Shown: piece by piece, positions 14,413 to 39,322 of the stretch | Position numbering within the stretch: the stretch's first letter is position 1 | Layout of the letters: each line of letters begins with the position of its first letter | Assembly: GCF_003667345.1 (NCBI RefSeq) | Contig: NZ_RCWF01000016.1 | Span: 1-52,307 of the forward strand | DNA from: Poseidonibacter antarcticus | GTDB lineage: Bacteria > Campylobacterota > Campylobacteria > Campylobacterales > Arcobacteraceae | Length of the DNA stretch: 52,307 nucleotides | Direction of reading: 5' to 3' | Made by a program: the position numbers and the translations under genes | The notes under the pieces: model-generated | Databases searched by the model: none | What the model saw: only the letters and a program-made list of their open reading frames with translations | What the model was told of the DNA's origin: nothing

Positions 14413-14445
14413 AGTTTAACTTATAAGTGGGACATATTTTGACTA
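14413..14445 (-). promoter_or_regulatory. Island promoter motif for the 41-aa protein
   Basis: Gene-oriented: TAGTCAAAATATGTCCC (14429-14445), 10 bases, TAAACT (14413-14418). The motif includes the stop codon of the upstream receiver-HEPN gene. Confidence 0.7.
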
Positions 14446-16722
14446 GTTATATTCTTTTATCGTTTCAATCATTAATAATTTTGTATTAAACAACTCTTTA
14501 AGTTGCTGTGGTTTAATATGTACATCTTGTATATTTGAGTGTAGATAATTATTTCTATTTCTTATCATATTTTCAATATTTAAAGTATTTTTGCATCCTA
14601 GTTTTGTAAAAAGTTCTTCCAGCTTATCGTTTAAGCTAGTGGAATTTACATTAGTATTATCCCAAAACCTATCTGATTCATATCTCTGTTCTTTTATAAA
14701 GATACTATTGATTGCTTCAAAACTACTAATAATTGATAATAAGGCATATATGAATCTGTTGTCTAATTTACTATCAAGTATATCAAACACATATTGTGCT
14801 TCATTGTGAATTTTTATAGCAAACTTTATATAGTTTTTCTTTGATATATTGAATTTATGAAATATTTTACAATCAATCTCATCTTTTGGTAATGTGAAAT
14901 TTATATCTAGAATATTAATTACCTTTTGAGTTGTAGAATAAATCTCTATTAAGTATTTTCTTTCTAATCCTTCATCTACTAATCTTACAAACTTATTGAT
15001 ATTTTCCACTGTACTTATACTATTATCATCTGGATGTTCTTTTTTAATATATCCTAGTATCTTTTTTTCATACAGTTTTTCTAATATGGTACTTTTAGAA
15101 GTAGCTGTGAGCATTATCACTTGGATACCTGCATTTATTTCATGGATTTTTTCTAGTATTTTTATTCCTGTAAAACTATCTATATCTTTTTCATTATCAT
15201 GGTCATTTTTTGAAAGTCTTAAATCTAGTACTACAACATCTGGATTATACTCTTTTACTTTTTTTTGTATTTGCATATAAAGATTAAAAAGGGTTTTGTC
15301 TTTGTATTCATATTCAAAAGACTCAAACTCTAATCCATCTTTTTGAAGAGCAGCTTGTAAAATATCACTCCATCCTTTATCCCACTCATCATCTATAAGT
15401 AAAACTTTTCCATTTTTGCTAGGCTTTTTTATGCTTATATCTATCTGTTTATCTTTTTGGGCATAGTTTGCTTTGAGATATTTAAAATAAAGTGTATTTT
15501 CTATTTCTTCTTTATTTACATTTATTACTGCATTTTTTTGAATATTTAAAAACTCTGCCCATCTACTTATACTCCATTTATTAGCTATATCGTGAGTTCC
15601 TGAAGTGTCTTTTGGTGGGTTTACTTGGATTTTGTTTAAAAACTTATTATTGTATTTTTCTTCTGATAAGTTTTTTACATCAAGTTGTTGATATTTTTCT
15701 ATCTCTTCTTTTGTATTTTTACATAGATAAACATTTGGGGTAAATAGTATATTTGCCATATCATCAAATTTACAAAGCTGTTCAGTACTAAAATCACTCA
15801 CTATAACTATAGGAATATATCTTTTTATTCCAAGTTCACTAGAAAGTCTAATATGATAAGCAACTCTAAGACCTAAAAGTTCAAGATAGTTTGAAGAAAG
15901 ATTATCTTTGATAAAAATCATTTCAAAATCTTTCTCTTTTATCTCTAATAACATCTCGCTAATATACTTATCAATATCATTAGTGCTATTAAACTTTTCT
16001 ATACAATCAAACAGTTCAAAATCACAAATATTGTCATGGTGTATTATCAAAGAGTTGTTTTTATTAGCTTGTTTATCTTCAATCAAAAAGTAAGACTCTA
16101 AACTTTGTTTATAATTCTCTATCTCTTCAAGCGTCTTTTCATTGAGTGTATGAAACTGATAATTTACCTTGTTGATATTTCCATCTATTGTAAAATCGCT
16201 TGGGTTTATATTATAATTTTGGATATCAAATAAAAAAAGATTTACTTTTTCTAACACATTTGCTACTATATTTTCTTTCCAATGCTCACCATAACAAAGC
16301 ATCATAATATCATCATCTCTACTTCTTACAGCATCTAAAAACAGTGATAAATTTTTACTATAAAATGTTTTGGAGTTGAGCTCAAGATATTCAAACTCGC
16401 TTGTATCATAAAAGTTTGCAGATATCCCTCCTGAGAAGAATATAAGTGTTTTTTGTTCTTTTTTACAATACTCTTTGAGTCTAGTTACAATGATACTATT
16501 GCTATCATTATTTTCTTCTAGTTGTACTGATTTATGACAAATGATAATATCGTATTGAGATAGATTAAAACTATTATGGATCATCTCATTTGCAAGTTGA
16601 TAAAAATCATCTAAGATTATATTATCAAGTATATTTTTATATTGTTCAAAATCAAAGCTTAACTCGTTTTTAAAAAGCTCTTGTCTTTTGTATCTATCTT
16701 CTATTAGGAGTATTTTTTTCAT
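14443..16722 (-). CDS. Pseudo-receiver / receiver / HEPN protein (cluster A)
   Basis: 759 aa. Residues 1-~165: receiver-like fold starting LLIEDR, but the phosphoacceptor position reads CHKS (H63) and the later strand reads LIFFSGG, so it is degenerate. ~260-335: a conserved alpha/beta segment (IFIKDNLSSNYLELLGL..AYHIRLS). ~369-390: PPKDTSGTHDIANKWSI. 438-565: a canonical receiver with D444/D445, phosphoacceptor D500 in VVLDLRL, T539 and K560. 600-759: helical HEPN domain with R723-NNYL-H728. Receivers switch by aspartyl phosphorylation; HEPN Rx4H domains are usually metal-independent RNases. I infer a phosphorylation-gated RNase effector. The gene is the last large gene after the kinase-like protein and MNT gene, and starts inside the HepT-like stub (ATGA overlap). 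Confidence 0.78.
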   Translation of the reverse strand: MKKILLIEDRYKRQELFKNELSFDFEQYKNILDNIILDDFYQLANEMIHNSFNLSQYDIIICHKSVQLEENNDSNSIIVTRLKEYCKKEQKTLIFFSGGISANFYDTSEFEYLELNSKTFYSKNLSLFLDAVRSRDDDIMMLCYGEHWKENIVANVLEKVNLFLFDIQNYNINPSDFTIDGNINKVNYQFHTLNEKTLEEIENYKQSLESYFLIEDKQANKNNSLIIHHDNICDFELFDCIEKFNSTNDIDKYISEMLLEIKEKDFEMIFIKDNLSSNYLELLGLRVAYHIRLSSELGIKRYIPIVIVSDFSTEQLCKFDDMANILFTPNVYLCKNTKEEIEKYQQLDVKNLSEEKYNNKFLNKIQVNPPKDTSGTHDIANKWSISRWAEFLNIQKNAVINVNKEEIENTLYFKYLKANYAQKDKQIDISIKKPSKNGKVLLIDDEWDKGWSDILQAALQKDGLEFESFEYEYKDKTLFNLYMQIQKKVKEYNPDVVVLDLRLSKNDHDNEKDIDSFTGIKILEKIHEINAGIQVIMLTATSKSTILEKLYEKKILGYIKKEHPDDNSISTVENINKFVRLVDEGLERKYLIEIYSTTQKVINILDINFTLPKDEIDCKIFHKFNISKKNYIKFAIKIHNEAQYVFDILDSKLDNRFIYALLSIISSFEAINSIFIKEQRYESDRFWDNTNVNSTSLNDKLEELFTKLGCKNTLNIENMIRNRNNYLHSNIQDVHIKPQQLKELFNTKLLMIETIKEYN

Positions 16723-17187: not shown

Positions 17188-19662
17188 TTACTTATAAAAT
17201 CTCAAAATATGAGTAAATCCTTTTGGTTTTTCTTCTATTTCTATTATATCTTTGACATTGTTACTATATAAAAAGTTCACTCGAAAGTTTGTATCCTCGT
17301 ATCTCGATTCAATGCTATAATCACAAAGATTTTGAAGAGATGAAACTATATCAGCTATATCTCCTGCTTCTTTTGATCTTTGAAGAAGTTCATCAGCACT
17401 TCTACTACTTTTTGAGTCTATATGGGAGATTTTTATTTCTATTGATCTATCTTCTAGCTCTTTTGTAGTTACTTCTATATCTTTTAACTCTTCCCTTTTT
17501 TTAATCTCATCAAATATCTTACTAATAGCTTGAGAGAATTTAGATGTATCTGTATAAAACTGTCTATTTGATAGTTTTGCACTTGATAGGTCAAGATTGA
17601 TATTTTGAGATTTGAATATAGTTTCAAGATTGTTAAAATCAGCTCTTAGTTCTATCTCTTGTTTAAAAAGATTGATAATATCTCCAAAAGTTGATAAGTG
17701 CTTTCTAGGTGGAAGCATCACAGGTTTAGGAAGCTTAAAATCAAAAGGATTTTTCCCACTATCACAATGCTCTTTTAGTCCATCTAAGCTTGACCAACCT
17801 ATATTTATTTTAGCTTTACTACACCAGTTATATTCACTTGATGGCTCTTTTTCCATCAAAAAACAGTTTACTTTTTCATACAGATTTGGGCTAAGTATTT
17901 CAAGTTCAGTTTTCATACTCTCAAATTGTTTTTTAACCTGTTTCATATACCCATCAAAATTTCCATACTCTTTTTGTAACTCACCGAAATCCCATGTATG
18001 AGTTGTGTATTTGATTGGTTTATCTATAGTGAAGTTTGATAAAATTTTTACTAAATTTTGAGGAGTATTATTTTTAACTATATCAATATCATTTTTAATA
18101 TCTGTATTTAATGCTAAGTCATATGCAGTCATTTCACTTTTAACATTAATATCTGCACCTCTTTCAAGTAATGTCTTTACAAACATTCTGTTGCCTTCAA
18201 AAGAGTACTTCATAAGTGCAGTCATTCCCATATTATTTTTAGCATTTATATCTGTGCCATTATCTAAGAGAAGGTTAATTATTCTAATTGGTTTTATTAA
18301 ATCATGATTGTAATCTTCTTCAATTTTTTCATGTATTTCATCCCAGCAATCATTAGTATAATCAATGTATTGAAGGTCTACTTTTATATTCATAATCACA
18401 TTATTACCAAGCTTATCTTTATGATTTACATCAGCATCATTTTTTATTAAAATTTTTGCCACTTCAAAACCATTAGTTCTTTCTGTCGTATTCATTAAAA
18501 TACTTTTTCCTTTTTGATTAATAAAATTAACATCTGCTCCATTTTTAATAAGTAAAGAGACAATATTTAAGTTTACATCCGCTAAAAATTCACTTTCAAG
18601 ACCAGATTTTCTATAGAAAATATCTTCTTCAATCCTAAGTGAACAGGCTGACATCAATGGACTATCAAGGTTTAGATCAGCTCCATTTTGTATGAAATAA
18701 TTAATACAATTGAATATTTCATATTCATCTATTGTTCTTGCATTGCTTTTAGAACATACTATTGATAAAGGACTCATTTGAGATTTTTTAGCTTTCAACT
18801 TAGGGATATTAACATCGACTCCTGAATCAACAAGAAGTCTTATCATCTTAATATCTAGTTTTTTACATGCATTCACTAAATATTCTTCTTTTATAAAATT
18901 GCCTTTTTTAATAAGTAATTTTGCAAGTTTTAAATCACTTTCTTTACAAGCATAAAATAAAGCATTTCTATGTGAATCTGATATTTCTTTTGCTAAAAAT
19001 CTTTTTAAATTATCTATTCTGATTTTTTCATTAGGATTAAAACCATAATCAATTAACATTTTTATAATCTTAATATTTGAACACATCCCAAAAGAAGAAA
19101 CTTCAATATCTTTGATTTCTTTTATTTTAGTTTTAATGCCAAATTCACAATTAGGGTCTGTTTCCAGTATTTTTATTTTATATTTTGCTTTTTCAAATAT
19201 ATCAGCTCCTCTATCCTTTAATAATTTTATAGTATTTATATTATTCCCAACTACTGCAAACATAAAAGCAGTTAAACCTTGTTTTTTTGTTTGCACATTA
19301 ATATTACAACCTCTATCAAGTAATAATTTAACAATTTCATTATTACCAATTAAAGAAGCTATCATAAGTGAAGTAGGAGCTGTTGTCTCATCTTTGATTT
19401 TTTTTCTATCACTTGATTCATCTTTGAATTTAATTTTTATTCCAGATGATCTAGAAATTGTTTTGCATCCTTTAGAGTATATGTCTATATTATTTTTAAT
19501 AAGCTCCTTTATAAAGCTTACTTCAATAGAAATTTTTTTAATATATAATTTTATTAAGATATCAGTTAGTGAAATTTTAGATAAATCACCACCTTTTGAT
19601 AAAAATTTATTTAGTTCTTTAATATTTTGTGTTTTTACAATGTTTTTAAATTTAGTATTCAT
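17188..19662 (-). CDS. Ankyrin-repeat / degenerate kinase-like protein (cluster A)
   Basis: 824 aa. Residues ~90-530 hold about ten ankyrin-type repeats (for example NNEIVKLLLDRGCNINVQ). Residues 533-824 form a module shared with 33613-35067 and 35064-37991: (P)Q(N/S)LVKIL(S/T)NFT.DKP.K(Y/F)TTH.WDFGEL, SPNLYEKV, GWSS(L/M)DGLK, a strand-helix FYTDT.K....I..IF, and the end GFTHILRFY. Its order (helical hairpin, then D....L..VI..IF, alternating strands, final FTHILRF) is like a histidine kinase DHp/HATPase core, but I see no N-box asparagine or DxGxG glycines. I call it a degenerate kinase-like or adaptor module; the conserved TTH histidine is a candidate phospho-site. It is the first gene of its operon. 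Confidence 0.65.
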   Translation of the reverse strand: MNTKFKNIVKTQNIKELNKFLSKGGDLSKISLTDILIKLYIKKISIEVSFIKELIKNNIDIYSKGCKTISRSSGIKIKFKDESSDRKKIKDETTAPTSLMIASLIGNNEIVKLLLDRGCNINVQTKKQGLTAFMFAVVGNNINTIKLLKDRGADIFEKAKYKIKILETDPNCEFGIKTKIKEIKDIEVSSFGMCSNIKIIKMLIDYGFNPNEKIRIDNLKRFLAKEISDSHRNALFYACKESDLKLAKLLIKKGNFIKEEYLVNACKKLDIKMIRLLVDSGVDVNIPKLKAKKSQMSPLSIVCSKSNARTIDEYEIFNCINYFIQNGADLNLDSPLMSACSLRIEEDIFYRKSGLESEFLADVNLNIVSLLIKNGADVNFINQKGKSILMNTTERTNGFEVAKILIKNDADVNHKDKLGNNVIMNIKVDLQYIDYTNDCWDEIHEKIEEDYNHDLIKPIRIINLLLDNGTDINAKNNMGMTALMKYSFEGNRMFVKTLLERGADINVKSEMTAYDLALNTDIKNDIDIVKNNTPQNLVKILSNFTIDKPIKYTTHTWDFGELQKEYGNFDGYMKQVKKQFESMKTELEILSPNLYEKVNCFLMEKEPSSEYNWCSKAKINIGWSSLDGLKEHCDSGKNPFDFKLPKPVMLPPRKHLSTFGDIINLFKQEIELRADFNNLETIFKSQNINLDLSSAKLSNRQFYTDTSKFSQAISKIFDEIKKREELKDIEVTTKELEDRSIEIKISHIDSKSSRSADELLQRSKEAGDIADIVSSLQNLCDYSIESRYEDTNFRVNFLYSNNVKDIIEIEEKPKGFTHILRFYK

Positions 19663-23902: not shown

Positions 23903-25117
23903 TTAATAAAACTCAACATCATCTTTTAAATCGATTTCCAAAATAACAGGATTTATTTTATATAAACTAGAAGTTACTTTCATATACTTGCTATTTGGAT
24001 TTTTCATCTCAAAAATTGCTCTTGAAAATTTCTTTAATTTATTATATTTTAGATCATATTTATCACAATTTTTCTCTATAAAAGCATCAAGATTATAAAG
24101 AATGCTATGGTCGTTTAGATGACTAAAGAAATTTAACCAACCATATCTTTTGCCTTTTATTTCACAGCCTACTATTTTGAAGTTTACGCTTGTGTATAGC
24201 TGCTTTTTTGTACTTATTTTGTTTTGCTTATATTGTGTGAAAAGTTTATTTATATTTTGATAGAGTTTTTGTATAGAACTCTCTCTTACACTTACAATAT
24301 CACCATCAAAAACATATCCCAGAAAATCAAATTTACTTTGAATGTCTCCAAAAGATGACTTATTAGAGTCTTTTTTAAATGCATGCGTAGATAGCTTTAG
24401 TTTTGCAAAGTTGTTAGATACTCTTTTTGCAAGACCCTTAATATCTTTGTGCTTAGATAATATGAGTATATCATCTACAAATCTGTAGTACTTTATCTTT
24501 TTATTGTTAGTATATTTTTTATCTAATACTTCCAGATATATATCAGCAAGAATTCCAGATATAGACAAGCCTTGAGGAATTCCTATTTTGTTATTATATT
24601 TTACTCTTTGTTTTGAGGGTGTACTTATATCTACTGTTGTTTGGGTTATAGCTTTTTGTATAAGTTCTAATATTTTTTTATCTTTTATTTTTATTGCTAA
24701 AGTTTTCATTAGTATTGCATGGTTAATAGTTGGGAAAAATGTTTGTATATCTAGTTTTAAGTAGCTGCTGTACTGAGCTTTAGATTCTTTAATATCTTTT
24801 ATCATAGTTTTTATAGATGGTTTTTGAATTTTACTATCATAAAAAGTATCTAATAGATAACTTGAAAGGTATTTTAAAAGTAATTTATCTCTTAAAGTTG
24901 GTATAGATATTTCCCTAGTTTTATTTGTAGATTTTACTAAGAGCTTTTGTTTGTAGTATGAAAAATCATAGCTATCATTTGAAACTTTTCTTACTATTGT
25001 GTCTATTTCTTGAGTAAGATTTTTATCAAATGTATTTTTATCTGTTCCATCTATTCCAGCAGTTTGATAAGAGTTGAAATCTTTGTAAAGTACTTCTAGT
25101 TTTTCTTTTGATAGCAT
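23903..25117 (-). CDS. Reverse transcriptase (defence or retron-like)
   Basis: 404 aa, a stand-alone RT. It has AGIDGTDKNTF (19-29), SIPTLRDKLL, the catalytic block YLKLDIQTFFPTI (D123), IPQGLSISGILADIYL (180-195), YRFVDDI (D215/D216) and FDFLGYVF. There is no maturase or endonuclease domain, so it is not a complete group II intron protein. The retron NAxxH and VTG hallmarks are not obvious. The 5' leader holds a candidate structured RNA, as in retrons and several DRT-type anti-phage RTs. I cannot assign a class. Ribosome binding site AGAGGAAAACAA. Confidence 0.85.
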   Translation of the reverse strand: MLSKEKLEVLYKDFNSYQTAGIDGTDKNTFDKNLTQEIDTIVRKVSNDSYDFSYYKQKLLVKSTNKTREISIPTLRDKLLLKYLSSYLLDTFYDSKIQKPSIKTMIKDIKESKAQYSSYLKLDIQTFFPTINHAILMKTLAIKIKDKKILELIQKAITQTTVDISTPSKQRVKYNNKIGIPQGLSISGILADIYLEVLDKKYTNNKKIKYYRFVDDILILSKHKDIKGLAKRVSNNFAKLKLSTHAFKKDSNKSSFGDIQSKFDFLGYVFDGDIVSVRESSIQKLYQNINKLFTQYKQNKISTKKQLYTSVNFKIVGCEIKGKRYGWLNFFSHLNDHSILYNLDAFIEKNCDKYDLKYNKLKKFSRAIFEMKNPNSKYMKVTSSLYKINPVILEIDLKDDVEFY

Positions 25118-25558: not shown

Positions 25559-26182
25559 TTATAAATGCTCTTTTGTGAGCACTTTAAACTCAACTCTTCG
25601 TGATCTTAGTTCATCTTGGCTAGTTTTATTTTCATCTTGATATAAAAGATTTGAAGAACTCATTCCATTAGCTCGAAGTTTTTTTTGAAGCCATTTTATA
25701 TTTGAAGATATGATGCTATCTTCAAGATTATAACAATATGTTAAAACATTACTTGCTCTTTTTTGAGATAGATTCATATTATATATATACGATTGTTTTT
25801 GGCTAGCTTCTCCCCAACCATTTGAGGTGTGTCCCTCTACTCTAATCTCTGCTATTTCTTTAAAAAATTGCCGTCCTGATAATAGTTTTATATATCTTGG
25901 GAAAAACTCATTTAAGATATTTTCAAAACTTTGAGGAATCTCATCACTTCCCATAGAAAAGGGAGAATCAAATCGTATAATATTATCCTTCGTAATGATA
26001 GCTTTCCACTCTTCTAAATCTTTGTCAAACTCTTTATGAAGTGCTTTGTTTAACTGTACTTTATATATTTCTTTTTCATTTAGAATTTGATATAAAAATG
26101 CAATAGCTATAAACATAAATATCATCATCAAAGCAGACATCACATCAGCAATATTTATCCAAGAAGTGTCATTTTCTTTCAC
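25559..26182 (-). CDS. ZorB/MotB-like OmpA-domain stator protein
   Basis: 207 aa, GTG start at 26182 (AGGAG upstream; overlaps the previous stop as TAGTG). One N-terminal transmembrane helix with the conserved acidic residue in SWINIADVMSALMMIFMFIAIAF (D13, equivalent to the MotB/ZorB proton-path aspartate). The periplasmic part is OmpA-like: IAEIRVEGHTSNGWGEASQ ... NLSQKRASNVLTYC ... ELRSRRVEFKV. It pairs with the ZorA-like gene to form a proton-driven stator-type complex, as in Zorya anti-phage systems. Confidence 0.8.
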   Translation of the reverse strand: MKENDTSWINIADVMSALMMIFMFIAIAFLYQILNEKEIYKVQLNKALHKEFDKDLEEWKAIITKDNIIRFDSPFSMGSDEIPQSFENILNEFFPRYIKLLSGRQFFKEIAEIRVEGHTSNGWGEASQKQSYIYNMNLSQKRASNVLTYCYNLEDSIISSNIKWLQKKLRANGMSSSNLLYQDENKTSQDELRSRRVEFKVLTKEHL

Positions 26183-26820
26183 TATAGTCTCCTATTTGCT
26201 TCTCTTAAAAGCAGTTGCATCTGCTCTTTGACTATTGAAGTAGATTGTTCTAGGGAGTTTTTTACTTCATTACTTGAACTAGAGAGGTTTAAGATAAGCT
26301 CTTCAATAGCTTTTTTCTCTTTGTCTTTTACTATCTCTACCTTTTCAAGTTGAGATAAAATATTTTCAAGATTCTTTTCACTTCTTGATATATGCGTTTT
26401 ATAACCCTCTTGCCATAAAATCATATTCTTTACAGCCTCATTTAACTGCTTGAAGTTGTCTCCAAATTGTTCTGTAAGGTTATGATTAAACTCTGTTACT
26501 ACAATCTCAAGGGCTTGCATTGTTTCACTTTTACTATCATGTTTTATAGGCTTAAATATAGAAAGTATTATAGAGAAGAATATCCCAACACCACTTGTTA
26601 TAAATGCAGTTTTAAGACCATTTAAAAGGTGGGGCATACTTGTCTTTATATCTGTTACATCAAAATGAAAAAGCCCTATAGCAATACCTACAAAAGTACC
26701 TAGAACTCCTAAAGATACTATTTCATTTTTATAGTTTCGTTTACTTTTTTTTTGAATACTTAGTGCAAATAGTACTAATATCCAAGATGTAATTCCTACT
26801 GTTATCATTGTATTGTTCAT
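26182..26820 (-). CDS. ZorA/MotA/ExbB-like proton channel protein
   Basis: 212 aa. Membrane helices at ~5-22, ~35-50 (VSLGVLGTFVGIAIGLFHF) and ~70-90 (LKTAFITSGVGIFFSIILSIF) carry the MotA/TolQ/ExbB core pattern LLNGLKTAFITSGVG. The cytoplasmic tail (~100-212) is a coiled coil. Zorya ZorA proteins usually have a much longer tail (700 aa or so in total), so this is a short-tail version. Confidence 0.75.
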   Translation of the reverse strand: MNNTMITVGITSWILVLFALSIQKKSKRNYKNEIVSLGVLGTFVGIAIGLFHFDVTDIKTSMPHLLNGLKTAFITSGVGIFFSIILSIFKPIKHDSKSETMQALEIVVTEFNHNLTEQFGDNFKQLNEAVKNMILWQEGYKTHISRSEKNLENILSQLEKVEIVKDKEKKAIEELILNLSSSSNEVKNSLEQSTSIVKEQMQLLLREANRRL

Positions 26821-30730: not shown

Positions 30731-30865
30731 AAATAAATAACTTATTCCAATTCTAAAACTTTCATCTTGAAATGAATTTATTTGATTATGATACTACCCT
30801 AAATCAACTCTTATATTTTTGTCAAACTTTATAGATTGAGTTATATCAAAAGTATTGATAAACTT
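30728..30865 (-). pseudogene. C-terminal scrap of a DUF4105-like gene
   Basis: Reads INTFDITQSIKFDKNIRVDLG, stop, YHNQINSFQDESFRIGISYLF, stop. This aligns with the last ~43 residues of the 611-aa-type protein at 3152 (LNTLNLTQSIKLKENIRFDI ... FGFVLNYIF). It is fused to the IS256 scrap, and its final stop lies inside the next promoter motif. Confidence 0.6.
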
Positions 30866-31128
30866 TTTTGATTAGTATGATATGTGGTTGATAGACCAGT
30901 TACTAAGTGGTGTACTTTTACTTTGCACTTGACAGTCTTTCCATTCTTTCTATTTTTATCTCCAGCAAATACATCTTGAGTTATATGAGAATCTATTTCT
31001 GCTTCTAAAGCAGCTTCTACTAATTGTTTTACTAGAGGAGCAAGTACTCCATCTTTACCATTAATATTTTTACCTGCAAGTAAATCTTGTACTGCTTCAT
31101 TAAAATCAAATTGTTTCTTCCCTTCCAT
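30841..31128 (-). mobile_element. IS256-family transposase N-terminal fragment
   Basis: FDFNEAVQDLLAGKNINGKDGVLAPLVKQLVEAALEAEIDSHI ... NRKNGKTVK is the typical start of IS256/mutator transposases, which are ~400 aa. Recognisable similarity ends near residue 65. The rest of the element is gone and it is joined to the DUF4105 scrap. Not functional. Confidence 0.8.
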
Positions 31129-31182: not shown

Positions 31183-31317
31183 TTAATAATCTTGGGATTC
31201 AGCTTTGAATTTTTCTCGACTGTACAATTTCTTAGATTTCATAGTTCTTGTAGTTGGGTTAAATCCCCAAGAAATTCTTTGTTTAAGTTTTGGAATTTTT
31301 ATAGTTATTTTTTTCAT
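31183..31317 (-). CDS. 44-aa basic protein downstream of receiver-HEPN B
   Basis: MKKITIKIPKLKQRISWGFN then PTTRTMKSKKLYSREKFKAE. It is a homologue of the 41-aa protein at 14260-14385 and sits at the same place relative to its receiver-HEPN gene. GGAG precedes the ATG by the same distance. The island promoter again overlaps the upstream stop codon. Confidence 0.75.
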   Translation of the reverse strand: MKKITIKIPKLKQRISWGFNPTTRTMKSKKLYSREKFKAESQDY

Positions 31318-31342
31318 GATATACTCCATTTATATTTATTGG

Positions 31343-31375
31343 AGTATATCTTATATTTTAGACATATTTTGTCTC
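31343..31375 (-). promoter_or_regulatory. Island promoter motif for the 44-aa protein
   Basis: Gene-oriented: GAGACAAAATATGTCTA (31359-31375), 10 bases, TATACT (31343-31348). It overlaps the first base of the receiver-HEPN stop codon. Confidence 0.78.
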
Positions 31376-32961
31376 TATTTGTGATTAAACATATTTTGTA
31401 AGTTTTCTAAAACATTAGTTACATTATAAGTTCTAATTTTTGGTGGGTTATCTATTATTTGTATCATTTTTTCAAGTTTCTTAAACCATTTAACAATTTC
31501 TTTATCAGTGACAAGTATATTTCTTCTTGAGTGAAGATAATCATTTCTTTTGTCGATTAACTTTTTCATATCAAGATTATCCTTTGTACCAAATTTCTCA
31601 AATAGTTTAACAATTCTACATCTTAATGCATTATACTGGCAATCATATGGTTCTTTATCCCAAAATGTCATTTCTTTTTCATTTATAAATATACTTAATA
31701 TTGTTTCTAAACTACTTGCAATTGAAACCATTGCATAAATAAACTTATTCTGACTATTATTATCTAAAATATCAAAAATATTTTGTGTTTCTTTTTCTAA
31801 TTTAATCCAGAATGATTCATATTTTTCTATAGAAATATTGTATTTATTAAATATATCTTCATCTAGAATCATTTTTATATTCACAGTAATGTCATAAATA
31901 GATTTTAGATATTTTCTATCTAGCCCCTTATCAATCAAACTTACTAACTTGTTAATATTCTCTATTGTATCAATATTTTTATCATCAGGATGTTCTTTTT
32001 TAATATATCCTAATATCTTTTTCTCATAAAGTCTTTCCAATATAGTACTCTTACTTGTTGCAGTAAGCATTATCACCTGAATACCTGCATTTATTTGATG
32101 TATTTTTTGAAGTATTCTAATTCCAGTATAATCATCTATATTTTCAGTTTCATGATCTCCTTGGGCAAGTCTTAGATCCAAAATTACTACATCAGGATTA
32201 AAACTTACAACTTTTTTTTGTATTTGCATCAAAAGATTAAATTTTGTTTTATCTTTAAAATCATAATCAAAATAATCAAAGTTTATACTCTCACTTTTAG
32301 TTATTGAAGTTAAGACATCAGCCCAACCTTTATTCCATTCGTCATCAATGAGTAAAACTTTACCTTCTTTAGTAGCAGATAGAATTTCAATATTTTCATG
32401 TACTTTGTTATTATTTAAAACTTTTAGATATTTAAAATAAAGTGTATTTTCAATCTGGTTTTTATTTTTATTAATTACATCACTTTCTATAGATAGAAGG
32501 TTTGACCATTTATATATACTCCATTTATTTGCAATATCATGATTTCCTGAGGTATCTTTAGGGCGTTCAATTATAATTTTATCTAAAAACTCATTTTTAA
32601 AATTAGTATTATTTAATTTCATATATTTACTTGGTAAATTATTTACAAATATACTTTTAGTAAAAAGTATTTTAGCAAATGAAGTTATTTTATTTAATGT
32701 AAAACCATCCAAGTCACTTATTATAACAATTGGTACAAATTTTTTATATCCTAATTCTGTAGAAAGACGTATATGATAAGCTAATAATAAACCTGTAAAC
32801 TCCATATAGTTTGTTGTCAAACGGTCTTTTATATAAATGATATCAAATTCTTTTTCTTTTATCTCATTCAGAATATTCTTAATTTTTGAAAACTTTAGAT
32901 TTACATCATAAGTATCTATTTTAGATACATTATTATTATGTATAAGTAGTTTTTTATTCAT
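31375..32961 (-). CDS. Receiver-HEPN protein (cluster B)
   Basis: 528 aa, equivalent to residues ~225-759 of the cluster A protein. 35-105: IIYIKDRLTTNYMEFTGL..AYHIRLS segment. 132-150: ERPKDTSGNHDIANKWSI. 200-326: canonical receiver with D206/D207, phosphoacceptor D262 (VILDLRL), T300 and K321. 355-500: HEPN with R472-NDYL-H477. It starts 8 bases inside the 220-aa gene, so the fused protein of cluster A is here two coupled genes. Predicted RNase output of the system (inference). Confidence 0.78.
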   Translation of the reverse strand: MNKKLLIHNNNVSKIDTYDVNLKFSKIKNILNEIKEKEFDIIYIKDRLTTNYMEFTGLLLAYHIRLSTELGYKKFVPIVIISDLDGFTLNKITSFAKILFTKSIFVNNLPSKYMKLNNTNFKNEFLDKIIIERPKDTSGNHDIANKWSIYKWSNLLSIESDVINKNKNQIENTLYFKYLKVLNNNKVHENIEILSATKEGKVLLIDDEWNKGWADVLTSITKSESINFDYFDYDFKDKTKFNLLMQIQKKVVSFNPDVVILDLRLAQGDHETENIDDYTGIRILQKIHQINAGIQVIMLTATSKSTILERLYEKKILGYIKKEHPDDKNIDTIENINKLVSLIDKGLDRKYLKSIYDITVNIKMILDEDIFNKYNISIEKYESFWIKLEKETQNIFDILDNNSQNKFIYAMVSIASSLETILSIFINEKEMTFWDKEPYDCQYNALRCRIVKLFEKFGTKDNLDMKKLIDKRNDYLHSRRNILVTDKEIVKWFKKLEKMIQIIDNPPKIRTYNVTNVLENLQNMFNHK

Positions 32962-33616
32962 CTGCTAACTCTTTGACAACATTTATTATGCTATCTCTTA
33001 GTTTAAGTATCTCTGTTAAATAAACCCAGTTGTTTTCTATCTTCATTTCATAAAACTTTTTGTCAAGACCAAGTATTAAATTAATTTTAGTTTTATTAGC
33101 AAAATCATCATAATCTATGTCTTCATCAGCATTATTATCTATAAAGATATTCACATTTTCCAATATATTTAATATAATATTTAACTTCCATTGTTTACCA
33201 AAACTTAATATCCTAATATTAATACTATCCTGTCTTAAATCTTCCAAAAATAATATTAAATTTTTACTATAAAAATCCTCTGAACTCAAATGTAATAATT
33301 CATAATCCTCACGGCTATATGATGTTTCATTTCCACCTGAAAACAGTACTAAAGACTTTTTATTTTTTTTACAATAACTCTGAAGTTTTCCTAAAATCAC
33401 TCTATCTTCATTTATAAAAATAGATTGATGTGCAATAACTACTTCATATATGTTTAAATCAAAATCATCTTTTTTAATCTTTAACATAAAGTTTGTAAAA
33501 TCTGAATCTATCTTATTATCTAAAACATCACTATATGTTTCTAAATCTATATTTGCTGACTCTAAAAAATCTTTTTGTCGCTTCGGTCTATCTTCTATTA
33601 ACAATACTTTTTTCAT
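32954..33616 (-). CDS. Stand-alone pseudo-receiver (cluster B)
   Basis: 220 aa, matching residues 1-~215 of the cluster A fusion: LLIEDR start, the phosphoacceptor aspartate replaced by histidine (VVIAHQS, H63, same position as in cluster A), LVLFSGG, and SEDFYSKNLILFLEDLR. The retained histidine in two diverged copies suggests it matters. The gene is coupled by ATGA to the kinase-like gene upstream and overlaps the receiver-HEPN gene downstream. Confidence 0.7.
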   Translation of the reverse strand: MKKVLLIEDRPKRQKDFLESANIDLETYSDVLDNKIDSDFTNFMLKIKKDDFDLNIYEVVIAHQSIFINEDRVILGKLQSYCKKNKKSLVLFSGGNETSYSREDYELLHLSSEDFYSKNLILFLEDLRQDSINIRILSFGKQWKLNIILNILENVNIFIDNNADEDIDYDDFANKTKINLILGLDKKFYEMKIENNWVYLTEILKLRDSIINVVKELADE

Positions 33617-34442
33617 TTGTTATAAAACCTTAATATATGTGTAAAACCGTTTGGTTTATAATTTAATTCTTCTATATTTTGAGAAGTATTACTTGTTAAA
33701 TAATTTACTCTATAGTTTTTATCTTCATAACTACTCTCAATACTCCAGTCACAAAGGTTATTTAAATTTTCTTTGATACCAGCAAAATCTCCATTCTGTA
33801 CTTCTTCTAGCATAACATAAGCATCACTTCCTGCTTGTGCTCCTAATTGCATAATTTTTAATTCAATAAATTCTTTTGTTGAATCTCCTAATACCTCTAC
33901 TATTATATTTGTATATTCATGACGTTCCACCTCATGCATTTGTGAAAAAATAGTTTTTATTACATTAATTAATTTCTCAGTATCAGTATAAAATGTAACA
34001 CCTTTTAATTTTATCAATTCTACTTTATATTTTCTACCTAATTTTTTTCTCTCTTGAATAAAAATATCTTCAAGCATTGTATCTTTACGAATTTCAATCT
34101 TTCGCTTGAAGACATTTACTATTTCTTTAAAATCTTTAAAATCAAAAGGTTTATTTCCTGCATTACACCAATTTTTTAATCCATCCATTGAGGACCAACC
34201 TAAAGCTTCTGTTGAATCTGTTTCCCATAAGAAATTATAAACTTCTTTATATAGATTAGGAGATAGTGTTTTTAAATCATCTTTAATCGCTAACCATTGT
34301 GTTTTAACTTCAGCCATATATCCATCAAAATTTTTATAGTCACTTTTTGACAATTCTCCAAAATCCCAATCATGTGTTGTAAATTTCATTGGTTTATCTT
34401 CTGTGAAGTTTGTAAGTATTTTTACTAATGATTGAGGATTGT
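33608..34442. repeat. 835-bp direct repeat, copy 1
   Basis: Covers the kinase-like module of the 484-aa gene and its stop. It is identical to 35059-35893 except for two bases in the SNTS(QN/ET)IEEL codons, with no gaps (constant offset 1451). Confidence 0.9.
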
Positions 34443-35067
34443 TTGAAAGAAAAATATTTTTTTCTTTTTTTAAATTTGGTTGTAGTTTTCTTACATAAAT
34501 CAATGCAAAATATACTAACAACATAAAAATTAAACTTCCTTGACTTCTCATATAAATTTGATTTGATATATACCAGTCAAATGTTTCATCAATATTTGAT
34601 TCTTCTATATGTTTTATTATATCTGTAATCGAAAATGTTATCGATCGAAATACACTCATTGGAATATTAGGAGTAGAATGTTTTGCAACATAAAAATTAT
34701 AATCATATTCTTTTAAAGTTCTTAAATACTCTGGTATAATTACTAATTCTCTATTTTGATGCCTTGGCTTTGTTTTATTATAATTTATTAATAATTCATT
34801 GTCTTTAATAACCTTAACAATTCCATCTGGTTTTATATAATTTAAGTCTTTTTTTATTTCTTCAATACATAAAATATTATCAGTATGGTTATCTAAACAT
34901 TTTTTCAAGCCAAGACTTAAATTCTTAGTCAATAATTTTATTTCAATAGAATCAGAAATTTTTTTAGAATTGTAATATGAATAATTACGAATAAAAGATA
35001 ATATTAAGACTACCATTAAAAATATCATCCAAAATACAAACTTATTGTTTAAATTTATTTTTTTCAT
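33613..35067 (-). CDS. Membrane sensor / degenerate kinase-like protein (cluster B)
   Basis: 484 aa. Transmembrane helices at ~11-26 (FVFWMIFLMVVLILSF) and ~178-193 (LIFMLLVYFALIYVRK) enclose a ~150-residue periplasmic domain with two cysteines (C57, C67), the layout of a classical sensor kinase. The cytoplasmic ~275 residues are the same module as in the ankyrin proteins, here virtually identical to that of the neighbouring 975-aa protein. It lacks recognisable N-box and glycine motifs. Coupled to both neighbours by ATGA. It probably brings an envelope signal to the same receiver. Confidence 0.68.
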   Translation of the reverse strand: MKKINLNNKFVFWMIFLMVVLILSFIRNYSYYNSKKISDSIEIKLLTKNLSLGLKKCLDNHTDNILCIEEIKKDLNYIKPDGIVKVIKDNELLINYNKTKPRHQNRELVIIPEYLRTLKEYDYNFYVAKHSTPNIPMSVFRSITFSITDIIKHIEESNIDETFDWYISNQIYMRSQGSLIFMLLVYFALIYVRKLQPNLKKEKNIFLSNNPQSLVKILTNFTEDKPMKFTTHDWDFGELSKSDYKNFDGYMAEVKTQWLAIKDDLKTLSPNLYKEVYNFLWETDSTEALGWSSMDGLKNWCNAGNKPFDFKDFKEIVNVFKRKIEIRKDTMLEDIFIQERKKLGRKYKVELIKLKGVTFYTDTEKLINVIKTIFSQMHEVERHEYTNIIVEVLGDSTKEFIELKIMQLGAQAGSDAYVMLEEVQNGDFAGIKENLNNLCDWSIESSYEDKNYRVNYLTSNTSQNIEELNYKPNGFTHILRFYNK

Positions 35068-35893
35068 TTGTTATAAAACCTTAATATATGTGTAAAACCG
35101 TTTGGTTTATAATTTAATTCTTCTATAGTTTCAGAAGTATTACTTGTTAAATAATTTACTCTATAGTTTTTATCTTCATAACTACTCTCAATACTCCAGT
35201 CACAAAGGTTATTTAAATTTTCTTTGATACCAGCAAAATCTCCATTCTGTACTTCTTCTAGCATAACATAAGCATCACTTCCTGCTTGTGCTCCTAATTG
35301 CATAATTTTTAATTCAATAAATTCTTTTGTTGAATCTCCTAATACCTCTACTATTATATTTGTATATTCATGACGTTCCACCTCATGCATTTGTGAAAAA
35401 ATAGTTTTTATTACATTAATTAATTTCTCAGTATCAGTATAAAATGTAACACCTTTTAATTTTATCAATTCTACTTTATATTTTCTACCTAATTTTTTTC
35501 TCTCTTGAATAAAAATATCTTCAAGCATTGTATCTTTACGAATTTCAATCTTTCGCTTGAAGACATTTACTATTTCTTTAAAATCTTTAAAATCAAAAGG
35601 TTTATTTCCTGCATTACACCAATTTTTTAATCCATCCATTGAGGACCAACCTAAAGCTTCTGTTGAATCTGTTTCCCATAAGAAATTATAAACTTCTTTA
35701 TATAGATTAGGAGATAGTGTTTTTAAATCATCTTTAATCGCTAACCATTGTGTTTTAACTTCAGCCATATATCCATCAAAATTTTTATAGTCACTTTTTG
35801 ACAATTCTCCAAAATCCCAATCATGTGTTGTAAATTTCATTGGTTTATCTTCTGTGAAGTTTGTAAGTATTTTTACTAATGATTGAGGATTGT
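35059..35893. repeat. 835-bp direct repeat, copy 2
   Basis: Partner of 33608-34442. It encodes the C-terminal module of the ankyrin protein. Near-identity ends abruptly at the border with the ankyrin region, pointing to recent duplication or gene conversion. Confidence 0.9.
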
Positions 35894-37991
35894 ATTTGTT
35901 GACAACATACTTAATTATCAATGACCTAATATCATTATTTGCAAAATCTTTGGCTCTTCTACCTTCTTTATTCTTAAGTTGCTTTTTTGCACCTTTATCT
36001 AATAGTAACTTTATTAAATTACTATTATTTTCTTTTGCAGCAAACATAAGAGGTGTTATTCCATCATTAGTTTCAGTATTGATATCATTAGATTGTCTAA
36101 TTACTTCATAAATAAAATCTGATGGATATTTATTAATAAATAAATCATTTATGTTAATTCCTTTTAAATCAAAATTATATTCAATTAATTTTTGTAATCC
36201 AACAACTGATTTTTCATCAATGGAATCTTTTAAGAATGGAGAGAAATTTATTATTTCAATCAATCTTAATATAGAATCTTTTAGTTCATCATTAGAGTTT
36301 ACTAAATCTTGTTTTAACATTTCATGTGATGTTAATTCTGAATCCTTTTGTTTATTTTTAAAGTTTACTAAATCTTGTTTTAACTTAGAGGTTTTTTTTT
36401 CAACTCTTGGATTATTAATATTAGCTCCAGAAAGTTCAAGTAAATCCTCAATTTCTCCGTATCCTTTCAAATGAGCTACATTGTACAATGATAAACTATT
36501 TATTTGATCTTTTATATAAATATCATTATCAATAAGTAAATGAATAATTTCAAAATGCAATTCTAAACTATTTATTTGACCATTTATTTGGTAATTTATA
36601 TTATAATTTGCATCAGCACCATTATCAATAAGTAATTTTGTAATTTCTAAATTATTAACTAATATGGCATAAAGAAGACAATAATTCATCAATTTTTTAG
36701 AGTTATCATTAACTATGTATTTTATAAGAAGATTAATTAATTTAATGTCTTTAATTCTTATAACTTCAATACATGATTTTAAATCAACTCCTATGCCTTT
36801 TTGCAATAGGTGTTCAAGAGTATTATAGTTATTACTTTTTATTAAGTTAAAGAGAATAGTTGAACTATCTACAGTATTCAAGTATTCATTTATAGTATCA
36901 ATATATTGCAACAAGAACTCAATAAGTTCGATATCATGTAGTTTACTTGCAGTAATAAGATATGATGCAATATTTTCTTTATAATTACTTATTTCAATAT
37001 TTTTTAATAAAAAAACAAGTGTATTAAATTTAATATCAAAAGTATTAAAAATTAAGATTCCTTTAATTTTCTCACTATAATTTATATTCATATTATTTAT
37101 TTTTGGAATAACAAAATTTTTATTTCTAAATAGAAACATACTGAAAGCTGCATCAATTATTTCCATACCAATTTCTGCACCATATTTAATAAGTAACTCA
37201 CAAACTTGAAGTTTATTTTTCTCAAAATTTTTAATCATGATTTCAAATAGAACTTCCGGTATCTTATTATCAAAAACTAATCTAAAAATTTTGGAGGAGA
37301 TGAGTAAAAAGAGGAAAAAGGACTTGCCTTTTATTGATATATTAGGATTGGCACCATTTTCTAATAATAACTTTACCATCTTAATATTTCCAAATATACA
37401 AGCAAAAGCAAATAAAGAGAAGGTATTATTAATTTTACTATTGAGATCTGCTCCATTATCAATGAGATATTGAATTAAATCTAAAATATCTTGTTCAGAG
37501 ATATCATCATAATAACTAGATACATATTCAATATTATTAAGATATGACTTATCACTTAAGATAAGTAAGTAAGAAAAGAGTGAAAATCCGTCTTCGGCCT
37601 GATAGTTTATATCAGCTCCTTTTTCTACAAAATATTTAATAAGTTCAAAATTATTATTTTCTGCATCTAAAGAACATAGAAGAGGTGTTGAGTCATCTTT
37701 TGTTATATTATTAACATCACCTCCATATTCAACCAAAAGTTTAACAATATCAAAATCACCTTTTAGTGTCGAAACTATTAATGCCGAATATCCGTCCTCG
37801 TCTATTTTATTAATATCTACTTCATTTTCTATTAAAAATTTTAAGAAGTTAACATTAATATAATCTCTATCCTCATAAATTTTGTCAAATAAAGAAACTA
37901 AGTTAATATCAGTTATTTTCATGCCATTATTTGTAAGTTCTTCTATTTTTTTTATACTTTGTTCTTTTAATATTTTATAGACATCATTCAT
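35064..37991 (-). CDS. Large ankyrin-repeat / degenerate kinase-like protein (cluster B)
   Basis: 975 aa. Residues 1-~695 are ankyrin repeats of variable quality (clear ones near 66-95, 105-134 and 640-690), with a charged insertion near 520-560 containing a KQDLVN(S/F) repeat. Residues ~700-975 are the shared kinase-like module (TTHDWDFGEL, GWSSMDGLK, FYTDTEKLINVIKTIF, GFTHILRFYNK). It is first gene of a four-gene overlapping operon (ankyrin sensor, membrane sensor, pseudo-receiver, receiver-HEPN). A cytoplasmic sensing role for the ankyrin part is inferred. Confidence 0.68.
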   Translation of the reverse strand: MNDVYKILKEQSIKKIEELTNNGMKITDINLVSLFDKIYEDRDYINVNFLKFLIENEVDINKIDEDGYSALIVSTLKGDFDIVKLLVEYGGDVNNITKDDSTPLLCSLDAENNNFELIKYFVEKGADINYQAEDGFSLFSYLLILSDKSYLNNIEYVSSYYDDISEQDILDLIQYLIDNGADLNSKINNTFSLFAFACIFGNIKMVKLLLENGANPNISIKGKSFFLFLLISSKIFRLVFDNKIPEVLFEIMIKNFEKNKLQVCELLIKYGAEIGMEIIDAAFSMFLFRNKNFVIPKINNMNINYSEKIKGILIFNTFDIKFNTLVFLLKNIEISNYKENIASYLITASKLHDIELIEFLLQYIDTINEYLNTVDSSTILFNLIKSNNYNTLEHLLQKGIGVDLKSCIEVIRIKDIKLINLLIKYIVNDNSKKLMNYCLLYAILVNNLEITKLLIDNGADANYNINYQINGQINSLELHFEIIHLLIDNDIYIKDQINSLSLYNVAHLKGYGEIEDLLELSGANINNPRVEKKTSKLKQDLVNFKNKQKDSELTSHEMLKQDLVNSNDELKDSILRLIEIINFSPFLKDSIDEKSVVGLQKLIEYNFDLKGININDLFINKYPSDFIYEVIRQSNDINTETNDGITPLMFAAKENNSNLIKLLLDKGAKKQLKNKEGRRAKDFANNDIRSLIIKYVVNKYNPQSLVKILTNFTEDKPMKFTTHDWDFGELSKSDYKNFDGYMAEVKTQWLAIKDDLKTLSPNLYKEVYNFLWETDSTEALGWSSMDGLKNWCNAGNKPFDFKDFKEIVNVFKRKIEIRKDTMLEDIFIQERKKLGRKYKVELIKLKGVTFYTDTEKLINVIKTIFSQMHEVERHEYTNIIVEVLGDSTKEFIELKIMQLGAQAGSDAYVMLEEVQNGDFAGIKENLNNLCDWSIESSYEDKNYRVNYLTSNTSETIEELNYKPNGFTHILRFYNK

Positions 37992-38041
37992 TTCTATTAT
38001 CCTTATATTCCATTATTTTATCAAAAATAATCTTTATTTGA

Positions 38042-38074
38042 ATTATATATTAATATTTAGACATATATTGATTA
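38042..38074 (-). promoter_or_regulatory. Island promoter motif for cluster B
   Basis: Gene-oriented: TAATCAATATATGTCTA (38058-38074), 10 bases, TATAAT (38042-38047). The distal half is weak and the proximal half perfect. Confidence 0.7.
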
Positions 38075-38083
38075 ATTAATACT

Positions 38084-38761
38084 TTAAAAATTAAACCCTA
38101 GTTGCACAGGATCTTTTTTATATACTATTTCAATAAAGTCTGCTTTTGTTTTCATAGCTTTATCAAGTAAATCTTGCTTAATTAAAGAAACAAGAATTGC
38201 ACATGTCTTTGCTTGACAGTTTATAGATCTCTTTGGATTAAATTCAATATCGGTAAAAGTATCAAATTTTATAAGTTCTTCAATAATCTCTGGGTAATTT
38301 GAATAAAGAGTTTTTATATAAAGATAATCATAAAATGCTGTTTTTGGCTCATTCTCCCAAAAGACACCTTCATATTCAAAACCAATAATTTCTCCTGAGT
38401 TTCTAATTCTTATGTCCTTTTTAGCTTTTATACTCTCAACAAAATATAAGTCTTCATATTGAATATTTCCTTCAAATACTTTACTACCTTGAAAAGCACA
38501 CTCTAATGATATTTTTTTATCAAAATCAAAATTAACTAAAAGATTAAAGGCACTTAAACTCCATCCTAATTTATTATCTGATTTAGTAGAAACTTCTAAT
38601 ATATTTCCATAACCATTTTCTCTTGCATTCTCATGTAAAGATTGAATAGATTTCAGTTTTTGAGAAACGGCAAAACCATTATAAAATTTAAAATCTATAT
38701 TTATTTCTCTAAAAAAAGATTTTTTAGTTAATGTTGTTGTAAAAATTGGTCTAGTTGCCAT
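38084..38761 (-). CDS. Probable DarT-associated partner protein
   Basis: 225 aa. Recognisable elements are GNILEVSTKSDNKLGWSLSAFNL, SLECAFQGSKVFEGN, EGVFWENEPKTAFYDYLYIKTL and an internal C-x-x-x-x-C (CQAKTC). I believe this is the DUF6977 type seen next to DarT-like genes, but that assignment is from memory. It is not a macrodomain DarG. It overlaps the DarT-like gene by 11 bases, so an antitoxin or co-factor role is inferred. Confidence 0.55.
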   Translation of the reverse strand: MATRPIFTTTLTKKSFFREINIDFKFYNGFAVSQKLKSIQSLHENARENGYGNILEVSTKSDNKLGWSLSAFNLLVNFDFDKKISLECAFQGSKVFEGNIQYEDLYFVESIKAKKDIRIRNSGEIIGFEYEGVFWENEPKTAFYDYLYIKTLYSNYPEIIEELIKFDTFTDIEFNPKRSINCQAKTCAILVSLIKQDLLDKAMKTKADFIEIVYKKDPVQLGFNF

Positions 38762-39260
38762 ATGTAATTCCTTTTATTTTATTTGTTTGAATATTATTTA
38801 AAGCCATTATCTCAGCTTTTCTTGCTTCAATTCTTGTCCAAAAGTCTTTTTCATAAACCAAGGTCTGAAAATCTATAAATTCTAATATATTGTTTAATTT
38901 AAATAAATTAGAATTATTTTGATTTGCAACTTTATCACAAAATATAGTATCTTCATCAAATAGAATAGAAACATCTAATTCTATCCATACAGGTTTTATA
39001 ATACTATTTCTTTTTTTTGCTGTATGATACATAGGGTGGTCTTTTATAAAAGAAAGATGAACATATTTATCAAGCCCTCTTCTTATATCTAAAGTATGAC
39101 TAAGAGACTCAGCTCCAAATCTTGAAACATCAATGCTTTGCTTTATAATATTTGATAAAGACTGAATACCATATTCTTCAATTGATCTTAAATTTGATTC
39201 ATCTGTGAAATGATAAATTGAATTAATTCCGTAATTTGATAATGTTTCTCTTATACTCAT
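38751..39260 (-). CDS. darT: DarT-like DNA ADP-ribosyltransferase toxin
   Basis: 169 aa from the ATG at 39260 (AAGGATAAGAAG upstream); the in-frame ATG at 39314 lies inside the promoter motif and is unlikely. DarT features: SIYHFTDESNLRSIEEYGI (NAD-binding start), SRFGAESLSHTLDIRRGLDKYVHLSFIKDHPMYH, and the C-terminal catalytic glutamate in RKAEIMALNNI (E150). DarT enzymes modify thymidine in single-stranded DNA and act in TA and phage defence. It is first in a two-gene unit. Confidence 0.75.
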   Translation of the reverse strand: MSIRETLSNYGINSIYHFTDESNLRSIEEYGIQSLSNIIKQSIDVSRFGAESLSHTLDIRRGLDKYVHLSFIKDHPMYHTAKKRNSIIKPVWIELDVSILFDEDTIFCDKVANQNNSNLFKLNNILEFIDFQTLVYEKDFWTRIEARKAEIMALNNIQTNKIKGITYGN

Positions 39261-39289
39261 CTTCTTATCCTTAATGTTTTGATAGGATA

Positions 39290-39322
39290 AGTTTAGTATT
39301 AAATATAGACACATATTGTCTA
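39290..39322 (-). promoter_or_regulatory. Island promoter motif for the DarT-like unit
   Basis: Gene-oriented: TAGACAATATGTGTCTA (39306-39322), 10 bases, TAAACT (39290-39295). Palindrome arms extend to AAATATAGACA/TGTCTATATTT. This is the last copy I find before the recombinases. Confidence 0.83.

What the first reader, a model, noticed from the sequence alone, without database searches (positions are those of the whole stretch)
31183..38074. Cluster B: second, independently arranged version with two sensors and a split effector
The same components recur with different architecture: ankyrin sensor, membrane sensor, stand-alone pseudo-receiver (220 aa) and receiver-HEPN (528 aa), all overlapping by 4-8 bases. 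220 + 528 aa equals the 759-aa fusion of cluster A. Two divergent versions in one island show a conserved functional set, and a natural fusion/fission pair (Rosetta-stone evidence) that the two proteins act together.
Basis: partly seen in the sequence, partly recalled or inferred. Interest (0 to 1): 0.82.

Follow-up and report, generated by a model that had tools for sequence, protein, structure and literature searches.

The report
Two-sensor kinase relay controlling HEPN toxin
Four overlapping bacterial genes form a signalling relay in which two alternative sensors share one near-identical kinase-like domain and appear to switch on a predicted RNA-cutting (HEPN) protein; the same relay is found elsewhere wired to retron reverse transcriptases, which suggests an undescribed plug-in-sensor immune module, although no part of it has been tested in the laboratory.

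Summary
On the minus strand, 31375-37991, four genes overlap by 4, 4 and 8 bp: ankyrin-kinase (975 aa), membrane-kinase (484 aa), pseudo-receiver (220 aa) and iREC-REC-HEPN effector (528 aa). The 220- and 528-aa proteins are co-linear with cluster A's 759-aa fusion (40% and 49% identity).

In 47 non-redundant effectors, mainly Campylobacterota and Bacteroidota, 44 have the kinase upstream; the other three start near contig ends. In 397 Campylobacterota genomes, HisKin-conflict and iREC families exceed cut-off in the same seven. Fused and split forms interchange at least 4-6 times.

The input end is exchangeable: ankyrin, membrane sensor, fused retron-type RT, or (Bacteroidota) a separate RT directly upstream, with retron-like inverted repeats in many. 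The phospho-acceptor site of REC, the kinase His and the HEPN Rx4-6H motif are essentially invariant, but canonical ATP motifs are lost and the pseudo-receiver has an invariant His instead of Asp.

Best reading: a Detocs-like defensive relay with a HEPN output. Phosphotransfer and RNase activity are inferred. New variant of a known kind.

The parts
35064..37991 (-). Sensor 1: ankyrin-repeat protein with C-terminal HisKin-conflict domain (975 aa); invariant His = residue 723
   Evidence: relative with 30% identity over the whole input part in L034
33613..35067 (-). Sensor 2: two TM segments (near residues 4-22 and 177-195) flanking a predicted extracytoplasmic region, then HisKin-conflict domain (484 aa); invariant His = residue 232
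   Evidence: input part 46% identical to the single-sensor protein of L015
35064..35893 (-). 830-nt repeat copy 1 (HisKin domain of sensor 1)
   Evidence: 99.76% identical to copy 2, 2 mismatches
33613..34442 (-). 830-nt repeat copy 2 (HisKin domain of sensor 2)
32954..33616 (-). Stand-alone pseudo-receiver PsR (220 aa): receiver fold, acceptor Asp replaced by invariant His63, conserved Asp9/Arg13
   Evidence: secondary structure of the homologous part of the cluster A fusion
31375..32961 (-). Effector iREC-linker-REC-HEPN (528 aa)
32470..32955 (-). iREC (inactive receiver) region and following H-x3-N-(E/K)-W-x-I-x2-W linker
31906..32394 (-). REC receiver with complete phosphorylation site (Asp206, Asp207, Asp262, Lys322)
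   Evidence: receiver fold Z 12.5 in the cluster A homologue
31378..31923 (-). C-terminal all-helical HEPN domain
31531..31548 (-). RNDYLH, the Rx4H HEPN motif (residues 472-477)
14443..16722 (-). Cluster A: fused PsR-iREC-REC-HEPN protein (759 aa), fusion counterpart of 220 + 528
17188..19662 (-). Cluster A: ankyrin-HisKin sensor (824 aa)
38084..39314 (-). DarT1-NADAR toxin-antitoxin pair directly upstream of cluster B (92-nt gap, same strand); neighbour, not part of the relay

Best explanation
Cluster B is a defensive phosphorelay-type switch for a HEPN ribonuclease. Either of two sensors, a cytoplasmic ankyrin protein or a membrane protein with an extracytoplasmic domain, passes its signal through the same kinase-like transmitter to the REC domain of the 528-aa effector. 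The 220-aa pseudo-receiver and the inactive receiver (iREC) inside the effector hold the HEPN domain off, or position it, until REC is activated; HEPN then cuts RNA and stops growth, probably as abortive infection. The transmitter is a standard socket into which different inputs (ankyrin, membrane sensor, retron RT) have been recombined. In cluster B two inputs feed one effector, and their transmitters were made identical by recent duplication or gene conversion. Shown by sequence: the conserved gene set, fusion and fission, domain identities, invariant sites, exchangeable inputs, recent identity of the two transmitters. Inferred: His-to-Asp phosphotransfer, the inhibitory or scaffold role of PsR and iREC, RNase activity, phage as the trigger.
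For: Conserved order HK - PsR - iREC-REC-HEPN in 47 non-redundant effector loci, HK missing only in three that start near contig ends. PF22561 and PF22563 over cut-off in exactly the same 7 of 397 genomes. Kinase His 46/46; REC Asp17, Asp18, Asp73, Lys133 48/48. HK residues 118-279 fold as a histidine-kinase CA domain, Z about 12.5 to 4u7o and others, pLDDT 92.7. REC matches DivK and Spo0F at Z 12.5. Rx4-6H in essentially all complete tails; the recurring Pfam families of the tails are HEPN types, best 3e-5 for RiboL-PSP-HEPN. Retron-type RT fused to or directly upstream of the HK in 23 loci, with annotated plasmid copies showing RT - hypothetical - hypothetical - response regulator. WYL regulators, a RecD-like helicase and toxin-antitoxin modules around the loci mark defence islands.
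Against: The kinase lacks the canonical N-box Asn and G1 glycines in all relatives, so autophosphorylation in the usual way is doubtful. PsR has His where the acceptor Asp should be, so it cannot be a Detocs-type phosphate buffer in the usual way. HEPN Pfam scores stay under the curated cut-offs and no HEPN structure was matched. No phage-protection data exist. No phage trigger is known for the ankyrin or membrane input.
Confidence: 0.62

Rival explanations
1. The kinase-like domain is a pseudokinase: it does not transfer phosphate but releases the effector by conformational change or ligand binding; REC responds to nucleotide, small-molecule phosphodonors or another kinase.
For: Loss of the N-box Asn and of G1 DxGxG in all 46 relatives; the conserved His lies in a loop after a short helix rather than in a long DHp helix; pseudo-receivers flank the REC.
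Against: The kinase His (46/46) and the whole REC phosphorylation site (48/48) are invariant together, which is hard to explain without phosphoryl chemistry.
Confidence: 0.3
2. A toxin-antitoxin pair: the HEPN effector is the toxin and the PsR protein, or the kinase, the antitoxin, without specific phage sensing; the module is selfish or a stress device.
For: Compact overlapping genes; HEPN effector; toxin-antitoxin modules nearby and even inserted between HK and PsR in several relatives.
Against: Large, diverse, exchangeable sensor domains and retron RT inputs; natural fusion of PsR with the effector is unusual for an antitoxin.
Confidence: 0.15
3. A regulatory two-component system for RNA decay or gene control in the host, unrelated to defence.
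For: Complete receiver; membrane sensor.
Against: Patchy distribution (7 of 397 Campylobacterota genomes), location in defence-like islands, retron partners, no DNA-binding output.
Confidence: 0.1
4. The identity of the two kinase domains is an assembly artefact and cluster B has only one real sensor.
For: The window is one contig of a 55-contig draft; an 830-nt repeat exceeds short reads.
Against: The membrane-sensor sequence lies between the two repeat copies, so any assembly path must cross the repeat twice; the copies differ at two positions; the membrane input is a genuine kinase input in L015.
Confidence: 0.05

Closest known systems
Detocs (DtcA kinase, DtcB buffer, DtcC response-regulator effector)
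   Same: Three-part relay: histidine kinase, small receiver-like protein, REC-containing effector, in defence islands. The roles of DtcA, DtcB and DtcC are described in PMC11728103; the PNP effector that cleaves ATP in PMC11249213.
   Different: HEPN instead of PNP; an extra iREC in the effector; the small protein is a pseudo-receiver with His in place of Asp; PsR often fused to the effector; ankyrin, membrane or retron RT inputs. Homology to the Dtc proteins could not be tested, as the sequences were not at hand.
Pfam HisKin-conflict (PF22561) and iREC (PF22563) families
   Same: Both domains over the curated cut-off, so the domains are already catalogued as conflict-system domains.
   Different: Pfam names the domains only. 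No PADLOC or NCBIfam model recognises the whole module, and RefSeq names the kinase and PsR 'hypothetical protein'.
Retrons (RT plus ncRNA plus effector), nearest RT clades types XI, XII, I-C, XIII in PADLOC
   Same: In 23 relatives a retron-type RT is fused to or directly upstream of the kinase, with a1/a2-like inverted repeats before the RT in many.
   Different: Cluster B has no RT and no such repeats. The effector is reached through a kinase-receiver relay, which I know of in no described retron type (from memory; the main retron classification paper was not held).
HEPN toxins (RiboL-PSP, Apea, Swt1 types)
   Same: All-helical C-terminal domain with Rx4-6H; weak but recurrent Pfam hits.
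   Different: Placed behind a complete receiver domain; scores under the curated cut-offs.

Membership tests
Detocs | Kinase + small receiver-type protein + REC-effector encoded together | tested here: met
Detocs | DtcB is a phosphate-buffering receiver (needs acceptor Asp) | tested here: not met
   acceptor position is His in 42 of 42 PsR sequences
Detocs | PNP effector of the best-described Detocs | tested here: not met
   no PNP domain; HEPN-type tails in the loci
Detocs | Sequence homology to DtcA/DtcB/DtcC | not testable with these tools
   no Dtc sequence found; the E. coli yjcB-ssb islands looked at carried Avs4
Two-component system | Histidine-kinase catalytic domain fold | tested here: met
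Two-component system | Conserved phospho-acceptor His | tested here: met
   a His is invariant in 46/46, but in a loop after a short helix
Two-component system | N-box and glycine-rich ATP motifs | tested here: not met
Two-component system | Receiver with Asp-Asp, acceptor Asp and Lys | tested here: met
   48/48; fold
Two-component system | His-to-Asp phosphotransfer | not testable with these tools
   needs biochemistry
HEPN ribonuclease | Rx4-6H motif in an all-helical domain | tested here: met
HEPN ribonuclease | Curated HEPN family match above cut-off | tested here: not met
   best RiboL-PSP-HEPN 24.4 bits against a cut-off of 28.4
HEPN ribonuclease | RNase activity | not testable with these tools
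   needs biochemistry
Retron (cluster B itself) | Retron RT and ncRNA in the operon | tested here: not met
   no RT in cluster B; no upstream inverted repeat beyond shuffles
Retron (RT-linked relatives) | Retron-clade RT | tested here: met
   NAxxH and VTG motifs visible in L013 and L017
Retron (RT-linked relatives) | a1/a2 inverted repeats before the RT | tested here: inconclusive
   10 of 23 loci exceed all 25 shuffles against 3 of 15 controls; strong in L013, L027, L053 and conserved across L046, L047, L049, L052

The most novel reading that the evidence does not exclude
An undescribed family of immune relays with plug-in sensors: a retron (RT plus ncRNA) signals through a kinase-like domain and a receiver to a HEPN nuclease, the RT has been replaced by ankyrin or membrane sensors in Campylobacterota, and cluster B is a hub where two sensors with recombined, identical transmitters drive one effector. 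Its pseudo-receiver, with an invariant His at the acceptor site, may be a new kind of phosphoryl-accepting or gating receiver.
Probability: 0.4. Interest if true: 0.8.

Novelty: new variant of a known kind. Interest (0 to 1): 0.64.

Why it matters
If the relay works as read, it is a second kind of defensive two-component system beside Detocs, with an RNA-cutting output instead of ATP breakdown, and with sensors that are exchanged as cassettes on one transmitter. Because the same transmitter sits behind retron reverse transcriptases elsewhere, it links two separate fields (retrons and two-component signalling) and makes 'how does a retron tell its effector to fire' testable by phosphotransfer assays. 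The two-sensor arrangement, with kinase domains 99.8% identical, is a natural experiment in wiring a new input to an existing killer.

Tried and rejected
Detocs sequences: looked for in E. coli yjcB-ssb islands following PMC11728103; the four islands fetched carried Avs4, not Detocs. The Detocs paper, Burroughs and Aravind 2020 and the 2020 retron classification paper are not held. Viral contigs: no relative. Phages: one unannotated 7-kb record at 27% identity, not followed. Plasmids: two Chryseobacterium for the effector, none for the kinase. PDB sequence searches: nothing convincing for HEPN tail, PsR or HK; only receivers for the effector core. Structure searches of the 759-aa model were filled by receiver domains, so the HEPN fold was not tested there; absence of a HEPN match means nothing. 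Rfam: only tRNAs near the RT loci. Retron ncRNA upstream of cluster A or B: no signal. Promoter and terminator scan of 30.7-39.5 kb: no more sites than shuffles. One literature search on the Pfam names returned only unrelated papers.
Full report
Observation. The four genes exist as described on the minus strand between 31375 and 37991, with overlaps of 4, 4 and 8 bp. In transcription order they are an ankyrin-repeat protein with a HisKin-conflict domain (975 aa), a two-TM protein with the same domain (484 aa), a 220-aa protein without a significant Pfam match, and a 528-aa protein with iREC and a receiver. The 220-aa protein aligns to residues 1-184 (40%) and the 528-aa protein to residues 222-755 (49%) of the 759-aa protein of cluster A; the N-terminal match is far above shuffles. 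So the fusion/fission pair is real.

The kinase-like domains of the two sensors are 99.76% identical over 830 nt, with identity beginning where the domain begins and running to the stop codon. The sensor halves are unrelated to each other: the membrane half is 46% identical to the single sensor of L015 and the ankyrin half 30% identical to that of L034. Thus both inputs exist singly elsewhere, and cluster B joins them to one effector with a recently duplicated or converted transmitter. It is the only locus seen with two kinases in tandem, although several loci are cut by contig ends. The genome has just these three HisKin-conflict domains.

Is the set conserved? A scan of 84,980 species genomes with the effector profile gave 46 loci, five of which are the same as phylum-scan loci. 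Together with the phylum scan and the window there are 47 non-redundant intact effectors on the tree, mainly in Campylobacterota and Bacteroidota with single contigs labelled Planctomycetota, Bacillota, Altimarinota and archaeon. The kinase lies upstream in 44; the other three (L031, L036, L062) start near contig ends. PsR is separate, or fused at the N-terminus; in three fused Bacteroidota proteins (L050, L051, L053) the N-terminal part was too divergent for my profile. Independently, in 397 Campylobacterota genomes PF22561 and PF22563 exceed their cut-offs in exactly the same seven genomes. By hand, the chance of that overlap at random is about 3e-15. Fused (20) and split (27) forms need six changes on the tree, at least four forced by well-supported branches.

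Active sites. The kinase His is invariant (46/46) and the REC acidic pair, acceptor Asp and Lys are invariant (48/48). The kinase model (pLDDT 92.7) matches histidine-kinase catalytic domains at Z about 12.5 over residues 118-279. However, the N-box Asn and the glycine-rich G1 motif are absent in all relatives, so how ATP would be used is open. PsR has a receiver-type secondary structure in the cluster A model, but the acceptor position is an invariant His (42/42), with conserved Asp9, Arg13, Phe-Ser-Gly 92-94 and Tyr116: a maintained site, not a decayed one. The linker after iREC carries an invariant H-x3-N-(E/K)-W motif. The tail is all-helical with Rx4-6H in essentially all complete members, and the recurring weak Pfam matches are HEPN families.

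Inputs and the retron link. Seven kinases carry an N-terminal retron-type RT, and in 16 Bacteroidota-type loci a separate RT gene lies directly upstream of the kinase. Two annotated plasmids show the same order, where RefSeq calls kinase and PsR 'hypothetical protein'. Before the RT of L046, L047, L049 and L052 there is a conserved non-coding element bounded by CTTTGAAACACTTGCC and GGCAAGTGTTTTCAAAG (L055 has a variant), as expected of retron a1/a2 repeats; the fused-RT loci L013, L017 and L027 have repeats beyond all shuffles, but over all RT loci only 10 of 23 do, against 3 of 15 controls, so this is suggestive rather than proven for each locus. On the tree the RT/no-RT state changes twice; RT linkage on both sides of the deepest forks suggests, but does not prove, that the RT input is older and that ankyrin and membrane inputs replaced it in Campylobacterota. 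The tree is midpoint-rooted, so the direction is an inference.

Function. The most likely reading is a defensive relay: sensor, kinase-like transmitter, receiver, HEPN release. What is shown is the conserved composition, the invariant sites, the folds of kinase and receiver, the exchangeable inputs and the recent identity of the two transmitters. Phosphotransfer, the role of PsR and iREC, RNase activity and phage sensing are inferred. Detocs is the nearest known system in logic, but the buffer-receiver and PNP features are not met and homology could not be tested, so I do not file it as Detocs.

Novelty. The domains are already named in Pfam as conflict-system domains, so the parts are known. 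I found no model in PADLOC or NCBIfam and no paper in the held library that describes the whole module, its HEPN output or its retron link; several key papers were not held, so prior description cannot be excluded. I class it as a new variant of a known kind.

Noticed in passing
L013, L017, L027, L042-L045 (RT fused to kinase); L046-L056, L058, L059, L061, L063, L064 (RT gene directly upstream): Retron-type RT coupled to HisKin-conflict, PsR and REC-HEPN; looks like an undescribed retron type with a relay output.
   Followed up: partly
window 16831-17148; also L020, L022-L024, L026, L029: Toxin-antitoxin genes (MNT/HepT-like or VapBC-like) sit between the kinase gene and the PsR gene. In cluster A only the MNT nucleotidyltransferase is present, with no HepT-like partner beside it.
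   Followed up: partly
window 22398-23813 and 23903-25117: RecD-like helicase and a UG17-class reverse transcriptase (PADLOC RT_UG17, E 1e-116) between clusters A and B; a related helicase type (PADLOC PDC-M16A) lies directly downstream of the effector in many Bacteroidota loci.
   Followed up: partly
window 25559-26820: MotA/MotB-like pair that looks Zorya-like (ZorA/ZorB) from the sequence alone.
   Followed up: no
window 38084-39314; L016:12504-13680; L034:299-1466: DarT1-NADAR toxin-antitoxin pair next to this module in the window, and the same kind of pair near it in two other loci (the latter two recognised by eye from the sequence).
   Followed up: no
window 30841-31128: Short transposase-like ORF (95 aa, IS256-like by eye) just downstream of cluster B, possibly the remains of an insertion element.
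   Followed up: no
L039, L040 (Sulfurovum): Degraded copies of the module: PsR and kinase in short pieces, effector broken or altered.
   Followed up: no
MT837349.1 (7-kb 'Bacteriophage sp.' record): A 27% identical iREC-REC match in an unannotated faecal phage record.
   Followed up: no
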